64,000 nucleotides of DNA, from positions 310,001 through 374,000 of the forward strand of contig NZ_JAFIDN010000002.1 in assembly GCF_017921895.1 (NCBI RefSeq), given 5' to 3'. Positions 678-48,719 of the stretch are shown piece by piece; position 1 is the stretch's first letter, and every line of letters begins with the position of its first letter. Both the position numbers and the translations under genes were made by a program. Source of the DNA: Natronogracilivirga saccharolytica (GTDB taxonomy: Bacteria > Bacteroidota > Rhodothermia > Balneolales > Natronogracilivirgulaceae). The notes under the pieces are model-generated. The model made no database searches. It saw nothing but the letters and a program-made list of their open reading frames with translations, and was not told where the DNA came from.

Positions 678-3422
678 CTATTTAATTATTGTCATCTGGC
701 GGGTTATGGATTTCTGACCGGCTGTCAGGCGGTACAGATAAATACCACTCGAGAGTTCAGCTGCGTCAAACTCAACACTGTGATACCCGGCCGTCTGTCT
801 TCTGTTTACCGGCACTCCGATTCGTTGCCCGGTGACGGTAAATATTTCCAGTTTTACTTCTGCCTCAGACGGAAGGGCATAGGTGATTGTTGTGACCGGA
901 TTGAACGGGTTGGGATAATTCTGATGCAATGTAACTGATGATGGTAACTCTTCTGTTGCTTCGATAAACGTCTCCATGACGGTCTGGAATGAAAACGTGT
1001 CAGACCATTCACTGGAAAGGGAGTCGCTATAAGCCCGCACCTGCCAGTAATAGTCAGTCATGTAATCCAGATCAGATACATTGTATGTGGTGTCTGAAAC
1101 CGTAACCTGATCGATCATCAGCTCGGAAAAGTCAGAATGTGCGGAAAGTTGAACGCGGTAACTGTCCGCTTCTGCCACAGAATACCATCGCAAGATAACA
1201 GCTGTTTCTACGTCTGCTGCACCATTATCCGGAAATGCAAGCTGAGGTGCCTCAGGAGGCACGGGAGAAGGCTCATCATCTTCCTGGATGGTGGTAAAGC
1301 TTCGGGGCCCTGACCAGTTACTTGTCCCCTGAAAATTGACACCGCGAACCCGCCACCAATATGTAGTCTCCTTCTCAAGTTCCATTTCCAACGTATATGT
1401 TTCAGATTCAATATCATTCAAATATGCAACCAGGTTTGAAAAATCACGGTCTGTTGCAATTTGAAGGTCATAAGTTTCCGCAAGTTCTCCCTCCCATGCA
1501 AATTCAGGTGTCAGCTCCACTTCAAGAGCGTCGTCTTCTGGCTGAACAAGTACAGGGACAGAAGGATCATCAGGGTCAGAAAAAGAGATTATGCCATCGT
1601 GCAAAAGAGCTGTAGGAGCTCCGGGCAGACCCGGATCATTGAAGGTGAGTTGCTGCAGATAGAGACCGGCAGAGGATCCGGCCGAAGCTTCCGGTCCTTC
1701 TGAAAATACAAGTTTTAAAAGCTGTCCCTCACCTTGCAATTCTTCAGTTCCGGCAGCCGCAATTTTCAACATGCCGTCACTGATATTAGAGCTGACGGAC
1801 ATGCCTTCGCTAATTGTTTCACCCGTTTCCAGACCCTGGAAATCAAGCATGGTCGTATCCAGTGCGATTTCCATTTCATAGGAAAAAATGCCCAGCCCGG
1901 ACACATCGTCAACGATCACGGGCAGTTCCGCTTCCAGGCCGGTGAAAAGGGTAATGTTTTTAAGCGAAGCGTTGATATCATGAACGACAATTTCGCTGGA
2001 ACTGGAAGTAAAACCTTCATCATCAATAGCAAAGACTTCCGCAGTCCCGCTGCCGGCAGCCGTTATTTCACCGGTTTGCTCGTCAATGGTGACAACGTCT
2101 TCATTAGTCGTCTGCCAGTTGAAGGGCGAGGTGCCCCCGGTTTCCACTGAAATGGTTGCGGTGTCACCAGTCACCAGCTCAATAAGCTCTTCCGTCAGTG
2201 TGATCTCCGGTGCATCCAGGATAGAGATGGTTCCGTAATCAAAATCCGGATCGATGTCCTCATTAAACATTAAAGTGGAGAATTCAGGAGTTCTGTTTCC
2301 GGAGGCGTCATTTCTGACACGAAACTGAAGCCAGATAAGCGGACCGGAGCCTTCCGGGGGATTTACACCGGCAGCTGCCACGCTCAGGGATCCGGAGCTG
2401 TGGTCATAATCCACAGATCCGAAGCCGGCGTCATCAAGAAGAGAGTTTTCGGTGCTGAGGGCCAGGAACTCGAGATGCTGGCCGGACCACCCAAGTTCGA
2501 ACTGCATTGAAGTGATATTCAGGTCCGTCACATCACTAACCGAAACCGGCCACCAAAAGTCCCGGGTCTGACTGACCGAAGTATCGGGTGTCGAAACAGT
2601 AAGGGTCTGCAAAACATCAGGCTGTACCCGGAAAAGATCCGTCGAATCTCTGAGGCCAATCTGATCCTCAACAAATACCCTGATTGTGCCCGGCTGGAGG
2701 CCCGTAAGCCAACCTTCCTGGCTGATTGATGCGCGCTCACTGTCACTAACACTCCATGTTACCGGTGGATGAACATCTCCACTGACAGAAAAACGGGTCG
2801 AGTCTCCCTCAATCAGTGTTACAGAGGAAGGTGAGACGGAAATGCCGGGAGATCGGATGACACCAGAAACAACCGTGTTTTCCGGAGTACCCTCATTGAA
2901 AAAGCCCTGCATTTCAAAATTTGTCTCATCGCCGCCGGAAGCATCATCGTCCATGATGATGGTCAGATAAAACAGGATATTATCATTGTCATCGCTGAAA
3001 GTCAGGGCTTCAGAAGAGGCAAAAGCAATACGGCCCGTAGTTGCATTATAATCCAGGCTAACTGATCCCTCCAGCAGGGAACCATCGGTTGCCACCGAGG
3101 TAACGGATATAAGTGAGCGGTCATAGTCCAGTGTGAACTCCCCTGACAACACGGAGTCATGCCCGTCATAAGTGTCGACCGTAACGGGCATCACAATCTG
3201 GTCACCGGGCAAAACAATGGTGTCAGGCATGGTAATATTCATCGTTTCAGCCCGGAGCCCGGATGACAGCATGGTCAGTATCAAGACGGAAGTGATAATC
3301 AGGCCGCGCATACAACCCGCAGCCAGCCTGAAGGGGAATAGAGACCGAATTAAATAAATCACGGGCCTTGTGTTACGATCGGGGCAAAGATCAGGATTGT
3401 AATTCATCACCCTGAGTGTCAT
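678..3422 (-). CDS. Secreted multi-cohesin/Ig-like/fibronectin III protein with type IX sorting domain
   Basis: The 914-residue product begins with a long basic leader. The hydrophobic signal segment lies at about 39-58 and ends SSGLRAE. The annotated start has a good ribosome site (AGAGGAG seven bases upstream). An internal ATG at residue 38 (3311) would give a standard signal peptide but has no clear site. Three cohesin-like beta-sandwiches are seen at about 60-195, 270-400 and 482-615, separated by Big_2-type Ig domains (about 196-265 and 405-480). Two fibronectin III domains follow (about 625-820). Residues 829-914 form a type IX sorting domain with NYPNPFNPVT. The protein is predicted to be exported and attached to the surface. 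It lies 29 bp downstream of the dockerin-bearing giant gene on the same strand, suggesting co-expression. Cohesin assignment is by pattern only; the binding partner is inferred. Confidence 0.75.
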   Translation of the reverse strand: MTLRVMNYNPDLCPDRNTRPVIYLIRSLFPFRLAAGCMRGLIITSVLILTMLSSGLRAETMNITMPDTIVLPGDQIVMPVTVDTYDGHDSVLSGEFTLDYDRSLISVTSVATDGSLLEGSVSLDYNATTGRIAFASSEALTFSDDNDNILFYLTIIMDDDASGGDETNFEMQGFFNEGTPENTVVSGVIRSPGISVSPSSVTLIEGDSTRFSVSGDVHPPVTWSVSDSERASISQEGWLTGLQPGTIRVFVEDQIGLRDSTDLFRVQPDVLQTLTVSTPDTSVSQTRDFWWPVSVSDVTDLNITSMQFELGWSGQHLEFLALSTENSLLDDAGFGSVDYDHSSGSLSVAAAGVNPPEGSGPLIWLQFRVRNDASGNRTPEFSTLMFNEDIDPDFDYGTISILDAPEITLTEELIELVTGDTATISVETGGTSPFNWQTTNEDVVTIDEQTGEITAAGSGTAEVFAIDDEGFTSSSSEIVVHDINASLKNITLFTGLEAELPVIVDDVSGLGIFSYEMEIALDTTMLDFQGLETGETISEGMSVSSNISDGMLKIAAAGTEELQGEGQLLKLVFSEGPEASAGSSAGLYLQQLTFNDPGLPGAPTALLHDGIISFSDPDDPSVPVLVQPEDDALEVELTPEFAWEGELAETYDLQIATDRDFSNLVAYLNDIESETYTLEMELEKETTYWWRVRGVNFQGTSNWSGPRSFTTIQEDDEPSPVPPEAPQLAFPDNGAADVETAVILRWYSVAEADSYRVQLSAHSDFSELMIDQVTVSDTTYNVSDLDYMTDYYWQVRAYSDSLSSEWSDTFSFQTVMETFIEATEELPSSVTLHQNYPNPFNPVTTITYALPSEAEVKLEIFTVTGQRIGVPVNRRQTAGYHSVEFDAAELSSGIYLYRLTAGQKSITRQMTIIK

Positions 3423-44403: not shown

Positions 44404-45993
44404 ATGATAATCAAAAACCTGTTCCGTTTTGTTAAGGTGGCACGCCTGAACCTCCCGCTGGTGATGGCCTCCCTGATGCTTCTAACAGTTTCATGTAATT
44501 CGCAAAATGACGCGGATCTGCATGATCTGTTGATTAAAAATGCAAAAATAATCGATGGAACCGGCTCTGAATCGTTTGCAGGGCATGTTGTTGTTGATGA
44601 GGGGGTTATTGTGAACGTCGGTGAATTTGACGCAGAGATTGTGCAGTCAAAAAAAACCATTGACGCAGAAGGGCGCGTACTTTCTCCGGGCTTCATCGAT
44701 GCCCATTCACACGGCGATCCCCTGGAAACGCCCCGTTTCCACAATTTTCTGGCCATGGGTGTGACCTCGGTCAGTCTGGGTCAGGATGGCCGCAGCCCTG
44801 GTGGAAGAGATGTGGCCGCCTGGATGGACAAGGTGGATTCGTCAGGAACCGGACCCAACATCGTACACTTTGTCGGACACAGTACATTGCGCGAACTCAT
44901 CGATGCTCCCCGCGAGTCAGGACTGGACCAAAGCTATATAGAACAGATGCTGGAGATACTCGGCCGCTCTCTGCAAGCCGGATCCTTCGGACTGACTACC
45001 GGTCTTGAATATGATCACGGAATGTTTGCTGATTCTGACGAGCTGGCAGCTCTTGCCGGTCCGGTAGCGGAAGCGAACGGATTGGTCATGAGTCACATGC
45101 GAAGTGAGGACGACGATAAAATTCTGGATTCCGTTACTGAACTGCTGAACCAGGGGCGCGAATCAGGAGCGCATGTCCACGTTTCTCATATAAAAATAGT
45201 TTTTGGTGATGATCCCGCGCTGGCAGGCGAAGTGTTGGGATTGATGGATGAGACCAGGAAGGAAGGCCTGCGGGTGACAGCTGACGTCTATCCCTATGTC
45301 GCAAGTTTTACCGGTATTGGGATTGTCTTTCCGGAATGGGCGCTGCCTCCCAATGATTTCGATGAAGTGGTGGAGAACCGGCGTGATGAACTGGAAGAAT
45401 ATCTTCGCAACAGAGTTGCCATGAGAAACGGACCGGAAGCAACACTGTTCGGCACAGATCAATGGGCCGGAAAAACGCTGGCCGAAGTTGCCGAAGAGAA
45501 GGGCAAGCCCTTTGAACAGGTACTGATCGATGATATCGGTCCCCGTGGCGCCAGCGCAGCCTATTTTGTAATGGATGAGGATGTTATGCAGCGTTTTCTT
45601 ACCGATCCTCATGTGATGGTCAGTTCCGACGGAAGCCCGACTATGCGCCATCCCCGCGGCTACGGAAGCTTCGCTCGCATTATCCGGAAATATGTCAATG
45701 AAAAAGAGCTGCTGACACTGGAAGAGGCCATCCATAAAATGTCCGGACTCACTGCCGAAACCATCGGTCTGTCTGATCCCGGCCGGGTTGAAACGCCGCG
45801 GGGGATCATCCGGGAGGGATATGCCGCAGATCTGCTGCTGTTTGATCCCGGTCAGATCCGGGACCTGGCAACATTTGAAGAACCGCACACCTATGCCAAG
45901 GGCTTTGACCGGGTATTCGTTAACGGCACAGCCGTGGTGGAAAATGGAAATAAAAACACGGAACTCCCGGGCCGGGTCCTGCGGAGAAGATAA
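44404..45993 (+). CDS. N-acyl-D-amino-acid deacylase-like amidohydrolase (first tandem copy)
   Basis: The enzyme family removes acyl groups from N-acyl-D-amino acids using zinc. A lipoprotein-like signal ends near C31. The TIM-barrel metal residues visible are H101 and H103 (DAHSHGD), and His in SHMRSEDDD and VHVSHIK; the probable catalytic Asp is in VSSDGSPTMRHPRG. The cysteine that bridges zinc in the studied D-aminoacylase is replaced in LGQDGRS. The C-terminal urease-like beta domain is present (GYAADLLLFDP). The length of 529 residues fits. It is followed within 13 bp by a close paralogue. Substrate is inferred from family only. Confidence 0.82.
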   Translation: MIIKNLFRFVKVARLNLPLVMASLMLLTVSCNSQNDADLHDLLIKNAKIIDGTGSESFAGHVVVDEGVIVNVGEFDAEIVQSKKTIDAEGRVLSPGFIDAHSHGDPLETPRFHNFLAMGVTSVSLGQDGRSPGGRDVAAWMDKVDSSGTGPNIVHFVGHSTLRELIDAPRESGLDQSYIEQMLEILGRSLQAGSFGLTTGLEYDHGMFADSDELAALAGPVAEANGLVMSHMRSEDDDKILDSVTELLNQGRESGAHVHVSHIKIVFGDDPALAGEVLGLMDETRKEGLRVTADVYPYVASFTGIGIVFPEWALPPNDFDEVVENRRDELEEYLRNRVAMRNGPEATLFGTDQWAGKTLAEVAEEKGKPFEQVLIDDIGPRGASAAYFVMDEDVMQRFLTDPHVMVSSDGSPTMRHPRGYGSFARIIRKYVNEKELLTLEEAIHKMSGLTAETIGLSDPGRVETPRGIIREGYAADLLLFDPGQIRDLATFEEPHTYAKGFDRVFVNGTAVVENGNKNTELPGRVLRRR

Positions 45994-46006
45994 TGACAGC
46001 CAGAAA

Positions 46007-47593
46007 ATGACTTTTACTGCAAGATGTACTGCTTTGTTTTTGATGCTCGTGTCGTTTGCAGCCGCAACGTGCTGTTCTCCGGACCAGCAAGAAAATGAAT
46101 CCACGGTTCTGATCACAAATGCCCGCATTATCGACGGAACAGGTTCACCGGCATTTGACGGATCAGTTCTGATCCGGGATGAAAAAATCGCCGGGGTCAC
46201 TAAGGCAGGTTCGGGCGAAAATGAGGGATCTGAAGATGTGAGCCGTGTTATTGACGCCGGCGGAGATGTTCTTGCTCCCGGTTTCATCGATGCGCATTCA
46301 CGGGGCAACCCTTTTGAAACTCCGCGATTTGATAACTTCCTCTCGATGGGGGTTACAACCATCACTCTCGGTCTTGTCGGGACCCATCCCGGCGGCGAAG
46401 ATGCAGCATCATGGCTGGATGATGTCAATGCGCGCGGAACAGGTCCCAATATAATCCATTTTACCGGACACAGCACACTCAGGGAGATCGTTGATGCCCC
46501 GGATGAGGGAGATCTTGATGCCGCATATATCAGCGCTATGGCAGACATCCTCTCCGGTGCCATGAATGCGGGATCATTCGGCCTTTCGCTCGGACTGGAG
46601 TTCGAGCCCGGGAGTTATGCCGGCCGGCAGGAGCTGACGGCTTTGGCCGAAGCGGTTAACGACCACGGCGGAATACTCATGGCCCACGTCCGAAGCGAGG
46701 ATGACGACCGGATTGAAGCTTCCGTGCAGGAAGTGCTTGATGCGGGGCGGGGATCGGGGGTGCCGGTCCACTTTTCACATCTGAAGATCGTGTACGCCAA
46801 TGAAGTTGAGCGGGCAGAAGACATTCTCGGAATCCTTCAGGAGGCCCGGGATGAAGGGCTGACTGTCACCGCCGATGTCTATCCCTACGTTGCGAGTTTT
46901 ACAGGTATAAGTATCGTTTTCCCGGAATGGGCGCGGTCGGAACAGGATTTCGAAACGGCCGTCTCTGAACGCCGGGAAGAGCTGGAGGAGTACCTTCGCG
47001 CCCGGATTACCCTCAGAAACGGTCCGGAAGCCACACTTTTCGGGTCAGGGCCCTGGACCGGTAAAACACTTGCGGAAGTGGCCGAAGAGCTGGATATGCC
47101 ATTTGAAAACGTGCTCATTGATGAGGTTGGTCCGGATGGAGCCAGCGCAGCCTATTTTGTTATGAACGAAGATGTGATGCGGCGTTTTCTTCAGGATCCC
47201 CATGTTATGATCGGATCAGATGGCGGCCCGGAAATGCGTCATCCGAGAGGGTATGGTTCATTTGCCAGGATTATCCGCAAGTATGTCCGGGAAGAAGGAT
47301 TGCTCACCCTTGAGGAGGCGGTTCATAAAATGAGCGGCCTGACTGCTGCCACACTGGGTCTTTCGGATGACGGGATAGTCGATACTCCCCGGGGGTTGAT
47401 CAGGGAGGGATATGCCGCAGATCTGCTGATTTTTGATCCTTCAAAAGTGCAGGACCGGGCCGTGTTCGAGGATCCGCACCGCTATGCTGCCGGCTTTGAC
47501 CATGTTTTTGTTAACGGGGAACATGTCATTGCAGACGGTGAAAACGACCACCTGCCCGGAAAGGTGATCAGAAGGCAGGTTCAGGCCGAATAA
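46007..47593 (+). CDS. N-acyl-D-amino-acid deacylase-like amidohydrolase (second tandem copy)
   Basis: A close paralogue of the preceding gene, 528 residues from the ATG at 46007; the longer frame to 45788 overlaps the first copy and is rejected. A signal segment ends at the CC near 22-23, suggesting export. The first metal motif reads DAHSRGN: the second His of the H-x-H pair is Arg99. The Cys-equivalent segment reads LGLVGTH. The other ligands are kept: His in MAHVRSEDDD and VHFSHLK, and Asp in IGSDGGP. The active site is thus partly lost, or binds a single metal. It probably shares a transcript with the first copy. Confidence 0.82.
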   Translation: MTFTARCTALFLMLVSFAAATCCSPDQQENESTVLITNARIIDGTGSPAFDGSVLIRDEKIAGVTKAGSGENEGSEDVSRVIDAGGDVLAPGFIDAHSRGNPFETPRFDNFLSMGVTTITLGLVGTHPGGEDAASWLDDVNARGTGPNIIHFTGHSTLREIVDAPDEGDLDAAYISAMADILSGAMNAGSFGLSLGLEFEPGSYAGRQELTALAEAVNDHGGILMAHVRSEDDDRIEASVQEVLDAGRGSGVPVHFSHLKIVYANEVERAEDILGILQEARDEGLTVTADVYPYVASFTGISIVFPEWARSEQDFETAVSERREELEEYLRARITLRNGPEATLFGSGPWTGKTLAEVAEELDMPFENVLIDEVGPDGASAAYFVMNEDVMRRFLQDPHVMIGSDGGPEMRHPRGYGSFARIIRKYVREEGLLTLEEAVHKMSGLTAATLGLSDDGIVDTPRGLIREGYAADLLIFDPSKVQDRAVFEDPHRYAAGFDHVFVNGEHVIADGENDHLPGKVIRRQVQAE

Positions 47594-47774: not shown

Positions 47775-48719
47775 ATGAGCAGCTTTTCAGAATTATCCAG
47801 GAAAATTGCAGAGTCGTCCTGGTTCAATCAGTTTATTCTTATCGTGATTCTTGCAGCCGGTGTGGTTGTCGGTATCCAGACCTACGGTGAAAAAGTAGCG
47901 GACTACAAGGAGCTGTTATGGACGCTCGATCAGATCATCCTGTTCATCTTTCTGGTCGAGGTGATTATTAAAATGTCCGCCGAGGGAAACAAGCCGCTGC
48001 GCTATTTCAATGATCCCTGGAATGTCTTCGATTTTACAATCGTGACGGTCTGCTACCTGGCGCTGCTTTTTCCGGAGGTGGAGGGTGCGTTTGTGGCGGT
48101 ATTCCGCCTGGCACGCGTGATGAGGGTTTTCCGGATCGTCCGAACCATACCAAAGCTCCGGCTTCTGGTCAATACGCTGCTCAAATCCATACCCTCCATC
48201 GGATACATCGGAATTCTGCTCAGCGTCATTTTCTATATTTACGCCACGATGGGTGTGTTTCTGTTCCGGGAAAATGATCCTGTTCATTTCGGGAATCTGC
48301 AGTTGAGCCTGCTGTCGCTTTTCCGGGTGGTAACGCTGGAGGACTGGACCAATATCATGTACATCAACATGTACGGATGTGATCACGCCATCTGGGGATA
48401 CGGTGAGGAGAACGGCTGTACGGATCCGCAGGCATTCGGCTTTGGGGCAGCGCTTTATTTTGTGACTTTTGTGCTTATCGGCACCATGATTGTGCTTAAT
48501 CTGTTCATCGGCGTAATTATGAACAGCATGGATGAGGCCAAGCGTGATGCCCGCGATGAAGCGGAAAGGGCGATCGGCCTGAGGGAGCGGTCACTGCAGG
48601 AAGAGTTGTCACGCGTTTCAGGTGAGCTGGATGAGATGAAGCAGCGCATTGACACCCTGGCCAGGCGCCATTCTGTTACAAAAGACACAAAAGACGGCCC
48701 GGACCGACACCGGTCATGA
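47775..48719 (+). CDS. Single-domain voltage-gated cation channel (NaChBac/BacNav type)
   Basis: This six-helix channel works as a homotetramer in the inner membrane. The S4 voltage sensor carries five arginines at every third position (R111, R114, R117, R120, R123). The selectivity filter is T187-L188-E189-D190-W191-T192-N193, where NavAb has TLESWSM and the engineered calcium-selective CavAb TLDDWSD. A turret between filter and S6 holds two cysteines (C202, C215) that could form an extracellular disulfide. A coiled coil follows S6 (about 265-298). The length of 314 residues is normal. Sodium, calcium or mixed permeability cannot be decided by sequence. Its end overlaps convergent glgC by 6 bp. 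Confidence 0.88.
   Translation: MSSFSELSRKIAESSWFNQFILIVILAAGVVVGIQTYGEKVADYKELLWTLDQIILFIFLVEVIIKMSAEGNKPLRYFNDPWNVFDFTIVTVCYLALLFPEVEGAFVAVFRLARVMRVFRIVRTIPKLRLLVNTLLKSIPSIGYIGILLSVIFYIYATMGVFLFRENDPVHFGNLQLSLLSLFRVVTLEDWTNIMYINMYGCDHAIWGYGEENGCTDPQAFGFGAALYFVTFVLIGTMIVLNLFIGVIMNSMDEAKRDARDEAERAIGLRERSLQEELSRVSGELDEMKQRIDTLARRHSVTKDTKDGPDRHRS

What the first reader, a model, noticed from the sequence alone, without database searches (positions are those of the whole stretch)
44404..47593. Tandem amidohydrolases with diverging metal sites
The first copy keeps H101-x-H103; in the second the latter His is Arg99 (codon at 46301-46303). Both lack the Cys that ligates zinc in characterised D-aminoacylase. 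The copies are 13 bp apart and similar throughout, so one may have a new reaction or be inactive.
Basis: partly seen in the sequence, partly recalled or inferred. Interest (0 to 1): 0.5.

Follow-up and report, generated by a model that had tools for sequence, protein, structure and literature searches.

The report
Conserved amidohydrolase twin with dismantled metal site
Two neighbouring genes encode look-alike enzymes of the D-aminoacylase type, and the second belongs to a small, conserved branch that has lost part of the metal site such enzymes normally need while keeping the rest of the pocket, so it probably binds the same kind of molecule without cutting it in the usual way.

Summary
Copy 1 (44404-45993) has H101-x-H103; copy 2 (46007-47593) has H97-x-R99. 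Cys-to-Asp is ordinary here: 74 of 74 homologues in hand with HxH have Asp. The Arg copy recurs in five more genomes of the order, each with Val/Ile at the second position and each with an HxH copy too; the six form one clade (support 100/99), and five of six lie directly downstream of the HxH copy. They keep both beta-site His, the catalytic Asp and the substrate Lys/Tyr/Arg. Four of six evolve no faster than their HxH partners; the window's and G082's copies do, and G082's has an in-frame stop. This is a conserved, remodelled paralogue rather than plain decay. It most likely cannot run one-zinc hydrolysis; whether it is a ligand-binding partner or catalyses something else is open. It was found in only 6 of 56 genomes with a match, so it is dispensable. 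New variant of a known kind; moderate interest.

The parts
44404..45993 (+). copy 1, D-aminoacylase-like amidohydrolase (529 aa), HxH/Asp type; N-terminal hydrophobic segment followed by Cys (lipoprotein-like, own reading)
44704..44712 (+). codons of H101-S-H103 (alpha-site HxH)
44785..44787 (+). codon of D128, position of the D-aminoacylase zinc Cys
46007..47593 (+). copy 2, paralogue with HxR and Val (528 aa), same fold predicted
46295..46303 (+). codons of H97-S-R99; Arg codon CGG at 46301-46303
46376..46378 (+). codon of V124, second lost ligand position (Asp in HxH copies, Cys in D-aminoacylase)
46685..46687 (+). codon of H227, equivalent of beta-site His220 of D-aminoacylase, kept
46778..46786 (+). 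codons of H258-L-K260, equivalents of beta-site His250 and substrate Lys252, kept
47219..47221 (+). codon of D405, equivalent of catalytic Asp366, kept
47246..47248 (+). codon of R414, equivalent of substrate-binding Arg377, kept

Best explanation
The locus holds an old tandem duplicate. Copy 1 is most likely a working exported amidase of the D-aminoacylase fold that has Asp in place of the zinc Cys. Copy 2 belongs to a conserved sister clade in which the second His of HxH became Arg and the strand-2 Asp became Val/Ile, while both beta-site His, the general-base Asp and the Lys/Tyr/Arg of the substrate site are kept. Shown: the residues, the single clade, the conservation, the predicted fold. 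Inferred: Arg99 sits in the former alpha site next to Asp405 and pairs with it; with only two protein ligands left the zinc is lost or weak; ordinary one-zinc hydrolysis is gone; the pocket still binds a ligand related to that of copy 1, so copy 2 serves as a ligand-binding partner or does different chemistry on it. Between those two I lean slightly to the hydrolysis-deficient ligand binder.
For: HxR plus V/I in 6 rows and HxH plus D in 74 of 74 HxH rows, of 90 examined. The six are one clade, 100/99. Seven of 144 residues invariant in 25 HxH comparators are replaced in every Arg copy: P2 positions 99, 124, 195, 199, 226, 246, 407. Nine pocket positions (97, 198, 227, 258, 260, 292, 294, 405, 414) are invariant in every Arg copy that covers them, against 235 of 494 columns overall (chance about 0.001 if sites were independent). 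Neutrality (omega=1) rejected for all 10 pairs of the five intact Arg copies (2dlnL 261-481); dN among the four outside the window is 0.171-0.215 against 0.204-0.235 for the HxH copies of the same genomes. Copy 2 model pLDDT 90.8, TM-score by target 0.83-0.85 to the nine best chains, all D-aminoacylase-type. In PpOngB, H68A and H70A abolish activity, and alanine at Cys97, His222 or His252 leaves very little or none.
Against: No biochemistry; metal content unknown. Enrichment of the replaced residues near the active site is modest (4 of 7 within 2 residues, p=0.027) and vanishes if any change in any Arg copy is counted (6 of 26, p=0.39). The G082 copy has an in-frame stop. Two of six Arg copies sit on longer branches than their HxH partners: window 0.65 against 0.38, G082 0.57 against 0.28; window dN 0.287-0.320 against 0.230-0.248 for copy 1. 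The kept His, Asp, Lys and Arg could equally mean that catalysis goes on. Synonymous sites are saturated, so the omega values themselves are not usable.
Confidence: 0.6

Rival explanations
1. Copy 2 is an active enzyme with a new mechanism: Arg99 replaces the alpha-site group electrostatically, polarises the carbonyl or holds the general base, with no metal or with a metal held by the two His only.
For: Both beta His, the general-base Asp and the substrate residues are unchanged in every Arg copy that covers them, and several residues close by in sequence are replaced together. A related family (7 of 7 rows, one in the window's own genome) also lacks HxH (L-S-W) yet keeps the same His, His, Lys, Tyr and Asp. 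The PpOngB paper names a metal-independent subset of amidohydrolases.
Against: No substrate and no genome context that names a reaction. The listings showed no paper on metal-free amide hydrolysis at such a site.
Confidence: 0.3
2. Copy 2 is a structural or regulatory pseudoenzyme that works through contact with copy 1, like the inactive dihydroorotase subunit of Pseudomonas ATCase.
For: All 6 genomes with the Arg copy also hold an HxH copy, directly upstream on the same strand in 5 of 6. The P. aeruginosa pDHO chain is inactive but required for ATCase activity. A second tandem pair of an intact and a ligand-less amidohydrolase lies in the same genome.
Against: The Arg copy was found in only 6 of the 56 order genomes (of 128) with a strong match (many are drafts and the pattern is exact), so copy 1's family works without it; one Arg copy is not beside its partner. 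PpOngB formed monomers. The pseudo-domain of the yeast-type multifunctional protein is described as lacking zinc ligands and substrate residues, whereas copy 2 keeps the latter.
Confidence: 0.2
3. Copy 2 is still an ordinary zinc hydrolase; another residue (Glu198, Asp405 or water) fills the missing ligand.
For: Glu198 is present in 6 of 6 Arg copies and 65 of 74 HxH rows.
Against: The Glu is present in copy 1 too, beside the Asp, so it is not a compensating change. Alanine in place of either HxH His abolishes activity in PpOngB.
Confidence: 0.1
4. Copy 2 is a decaying duplicate.
For: In-frame stop in the G082 copy; longer branches of the window and G082 copies; patchy presence.
Against: Open reading frame in 5 of 6; omega=1 rejected for all 10 pairs of these five; dN no higher than for HxH copies in the four genomes outside the window; same replacements in all six.
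Confidence: 0.05

Closest known systems
D-aminoacylase of Alcaligenes faecalis (PDB 1m7j, mutant 1rjq) and N-acyl-D-glutamate deacylase of Bordetella (3gip)
   Same: Fold (TM-score by target 0.84-0.85, 29-30% identity to copy 2); the two beta-site His, catalytic Asp, substrate Lys and Arg
   Different: Zinc Cys is Asp in copy 1 and Val in copy 2; second His of HxH is Arg in copy 2
PpOngB, GlcNAc1A deacetylase (PDB 9kb1, 9kb3; PMC12017989, passages and section 6 read)
   Same: Same fold; shows what each position does: one zinc on Cys97/His222/His252, His68 and His70 needed, Lys254/Tyr285/Arg379 contact a sulfate in the substrate site
   Different: 25-26% identical to copy 2; HxH, Cys and both His present
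Pseudo-dihydroorotase of Pseudomonas ATCase (PMC7053772, passages read)
   Same: Amidohydrolase-fold protein without activity that is paired with an active enzyme
   Different: Partner is an unrelated enzyme; the related yeast-type pseudo-domain is said to lack substrate residues too, which copy 2 keeps
L-S-W family of D-aminoacylase-like proteins (own genome, locus L002; 7 rows)
   Same: Also lacks HxH while keeping the His, His, Lys, Tyr and Asp
   Different: Separate clade (100/100); strand-2 motif GEG may keep an acidic residue; below the cut-off of the nearest NCBIfam model (217.7 against 340)

Membership tests
Amidohydro_3 (PF07969) | score above Pfam cut-off 29.7 | tested here: met
   70.8 and 67.8 bits
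D-aminoacylase, subtype V beta-mononuclear site | D-aminoacylase fold | tested here: met
   copy 2 model, TM-score by target 0.83-0.85 to the nine best chains; copy 1 by sequence, E 7.9e-57 to 3gip, model pLDDT 90.9 (no fold search made with it)
D-aminoacylase, subtype V beta-mononuclear site | zinc-ligating Cys on strand 2 | tested here: not met
   Asp128 in copy 1, Val124 in copy 2
D-aminoacylase, subtype V beta-mononuclear site | HxH on strand 1 | tested here: not met
   not met in copy 2 (H97, R99); met in copy 1 (H101, H103)
D-aminoacylase, subtype V beta-mononuclear site | two beta-site His, catalytic Asp, substrate Lys/Tyr/Arg | tested here: met
   copy 2 H227, H258, D405, K260, Y292/Y294, R414; copy 1 H231, H262, D409, K264, Y296/Y298, R418
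D-aminoacylase, subtype V beta-mononuclear site | hydrolysis of N-acyl-D-amino acids; one zinc per chain | not testable with these tools
   needs protein
NCBIfam NF006560 (PRK09061.1) | score above cut-off 340 | tested here: not met
   210.9 and 189.2 bits; 205.6 for the Arg copy of G095
pseudoenzyme partner, as pseudo-dihydroorotase | loss of zinc ligands | tested here: inconclusive
   two ligand positions lost, two beta His kept
pseudoenzyme partner, as pseudo-dihydroorotase | loss of substrate residues | tested here: not met
   Lys, Tyr, Arg kept in every Arg copy that covers them
pseudoenzyme partner, as pseudo-dihydroorotase | complex with the active partner | not tested
   no complex prediction or assay made

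The most novel reading that the evidence does not exclude
Copy 2 stands for a new catalytic type in the amidohydrolase superfamily: an enzyme of the D-aminoacylase fold in which an arginine has taken over the alpha-metal place and the strand-2 ligand is gone, working without metal or with a metal on two His only, kept in tandem with its HxH parent.
Probability: 0.22. Interest if true: 0.65.

Novelty: new variant of a known kind. Interest (0 to 1): 0.45.

Why it matters
The pair is a natural before-and-after of a presumed metalloenzyme losing part of its metal site while the gene stays under selection, side by side with its HxH relative and with a defined set of co-changed residues. It makes a testable case of how a zinc hydrolase turns into something else. 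HxH loss also looks recurrent in this order: the window's clade, the L-S-W family, a second intact-plus-degenerate pair in the same genome, and fused double proteins in three other genomes. The general family models call these amidohydrolases.

Tried and rejected
Sequencing error or private mutation: rejected, six genomes share it. Decay: disfavoured, though one copy carries a stop and two sit on longer branches. HxR in other families: an exact pattern for PGF[IMV]DxHx[R/S] hit 11 of 128 order genomes; 6 are this clade, 3 are fused ~1000-aa double amidohydrolases, 2 had no open frame of 60 aa or more with the motif. A stricter HSRG-type pattern hit 2 of 395 genomes drawn over the phylum, both already known. 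These are exact patterns and a sample, so absence elsewhere is not shown. The 50 other order genomes with a strong match were not each inspected at the motif; the pattern covered all of them.

Genome context as a clue to substrate: the window's upstream glucose/sorbosone dehydrogenase (PF07995) and downstream ion channel (PF00520) have no match at E <= 1e-3 in the stretches fetched around the Arg copies (5 stretches) and around G096's HxH copy. Related genes, one of them scanned as DUF1684, lie divergently beside the HxH copy in G082, G068, G096 and G078, 58-70% identical to each other. No reaction could be named.

The dN/dS values: synonymous sites saturated (fitted time at its bound in most pairs), so only dN and the rejection of omega=1 are used. 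Site geometry: the structure tool gave no coordinates, so the Arg99-Asp405 contact is inference. Papers: search listings showed nothing on an HxR D-aminoacylase (one search returned none); they cover only open-licence PMC text. The metalloBSH preprint (PMC13081902; outline and sections 7 and 9) was read as a possible relative; it predicts a two-metal site with a carboxylated Lys and was not used further.

Rows dropped: 10 fragments of 90 rows left out of the tree. The 25 HxH comparators were picked by hand from the nearest clades of the tree. The G082 fragment was kept and left out of the pairwise dN. Structure alignments A3 and A4 used only rows from the window and the genome-contig scan, so the G095 Arg copy is not in them.

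Full report
Observation. Copy 1 is 44404-45993 (529 aa), copy 2 is 46007-47593 (528 aa), 13 bp apart on the + strand, 310/522 (59%) identical. Copy 1 has H101-S-H103, copy 2 H97-S-R99 with CGG at 46301-46303. Aligned to solved D-aminoacylase, the zinc Cys falls on D128 of copy 1 and V124 of copy 2. The beta-site His pair, the catalytic Asp (its place shown by the D366A mutant chain 1rjq), the Lys and the Arg are present in copy 2. D-aminoacylase residue numbers are recalled.

What it is. Both proteins match Amidohydro_3 and are closest among solved structures to N-acyl-D-glutamate deacylase and D-aminoacylase. Both start with a hydrophobic segment followed by Cys, lipoprotein-like (own reading; no predictor was run). 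AlphaFold2 models are confident (pLDDT 90.8 and 90.9), and copy 2's model matches D-aminoacylase-type chains, PpOngB among them, with TM-scores by target of 0.83-0.85. Neither reaches the cut-off of the best-scoring NCBIfam model.

Relatives. In the order, 56 of 128 genomes have a match to copy 2 at E <= 1e-100. Of 90 distinct homologues from these searches and a scan of genome contigs, 74 show HxH and all 74 have Asp at the Cys position; 3 fragments lack the HxH columns; 7 have L-S-W; 6 have HxR with Val (2) or Ile (4). So Asp for Cys is the rule among the HxH rows, which include named records of Bacteroidota, Gammaproteobacteria, Gemmatimonadota and Sumerlaeota, and HxR is a small, defined group. 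Its members are the window, G095, G067, G068, G096 and G082.

Linkage. In five of six the HxH copy lies directly upstream on the same strand; by first-ATG starts the gaps are 13 bp (window), 117 (G067), 8 (G095), 156 (G068) and 817 (G082). In G096 the two are on different contigs. All six genomes hold both. The other 50 genomes with a strong match gave no Arg copy in the exact-pattern search.

History. A tree of 80 proteins (10 fragments of 90 left out) puts the six Arg copies in one clade (100/99), beside a 19-row clade that contains copy 1 (94/96, not starred). I infer that the duplication predates the split of these lineages and that the Arg copy was lost in many. The window's genome belongs to another family of the order than the other five, yet both its copies group with theirs, while most members of its own family in the tree carry a more distant HxH gene; transfer of the pair is possible and was not tested.

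Constraint. Pairwise codon models reject omega=1 for all 10 pairs of the five intact Arg copies (2dlnL 261-481). Synonymous change is saturated, so only dN is compared: 0.171-0.215 among the four Arg copies outside the window, 0.204-0.235 among the HxH copies of the same genomes; the window's Arg copy is faster (0.287-0.320 against 0.230-0.248 for copy 1). In the tree two Arg copies, the window's and G082's, have longer end branches than their partners (0.65 against 0.38, 0.57 against 0.28); the other four do not. Of 144 residues invariant in 25 hand-picked HxH comparators, seven are replaced in every Arg copy (P2 positions 99, 124, 195, 199, 226, 246, 407); four lie within two residues of nine active-site positions (p=0.027). 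Counting any change in any Arg copy gives 6 of 26 near the site (p=0.39), so this support is modest. Nine pocket positions are invariant in every Arg copy that covers them, against a background of 235 of 494 columns. The G082 copy has one in-frame stop, with the catalytic Asp and substrate Arg still readable beyond it.

How it probably works. PpOngB, of the same fold, binds one zinc by Cys97, His222 and His252; Asp368 is the base; alanine at His68 or His70 abolishes activity, and alanine at a zinc ligand leaves very little or none; Lys254, Tyr285 and Arg379 contact a sulfate in the substrate site (PMC12017989, passages, section 6). Carried over, copy 1 has a full set with Asp for Cys and is probably an active amidase. 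Copy 2 has two of these protein ligands left and an Arg where a needed His should be. Ordinary hydrolysis is therefore unlikely. The kept His pair, base and carboxylate-site residues argue that a ligand is still bound. That Arg99 pairs with Asp405 is inference.

Comparison. Loss of HxH is not unique to this pair. The window's own genome has an L-S-W protein of the same superfamily and a second tandem pair (C1, about 478.5-481.2 kb) of an intact amidohydrolase and a neighbour, 32% identical to it, in which HxH reads A-R-T and the aligned His and Asp motifs are gone. Three other genomes of the order have a fused protein with HAR or HSR in the first amidohydrolase domain and HLH in the second. 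Copy 2 differs from the A-R-T neighbour in keeping most of its pocket. An inactive amidohydrolase-fold subunit needed by an active enzyme is known from Pseudomonas ATCase (PMC7053772, passages).

Verdict. Observation confirmed; interpretation partly supported and sharpened. I rate it a new variant of a known kind, interest 0.45.

Noticed in passing
own genome G000:C1 about 478530-481200 (loci L005, L006): A second tandem amidohydrolase pair: an intact copy (HSH) and a following copy with HxH replaced by A-R-T and the other aligned ligand motifs lost, 32% identical. The cut listing shows adjacent match pairs in at least G018, G092, G057 and G041; motifs there were not checked.
   Followed up: partly
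L135 (G115), L136 (G097), L137 (G112): Fused proteins of about 1000 aa with two amidohydrolase domains, HAR or HSR in the first and HLH in the second: another case of HxR paired with HxH.
   Followed up: partly
L002 (own genome C1 about 296 kb) and 6 further rows: Separate D-aminoacylase-like family with L-S-W in place of HxH and GEG at strand 2; His, His, Lys, Tyr and Asp kept in 7 of 7 rows.
   Followed up: partly
window 47775-48719: Single-domain ion channel (PF00520) with pore motif TLEDWTN. A paper describes NavPp with TLEDWTD, a sodium channel blocked by calcium, and artificial calcium-selective TLEDWSD and TLEDWAD mutants (PMC7041947, passages).
   Followed up: partly
L066, about 1838-3403, - strand (G082): Arg-type copy interrupted by one in-frame TGA, remainder still alignable; could be decay or an assembly error.
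   Followed up: partly
L066 6014-6925, L067 3411-4325, L069 4426-5334, L071 1244-2167: Related genes (58-70% identical) lie divergently upstream of the HxH copy in four genomes; the L066 one is DUF1684, the others were not scanned.
   Followed up: partly
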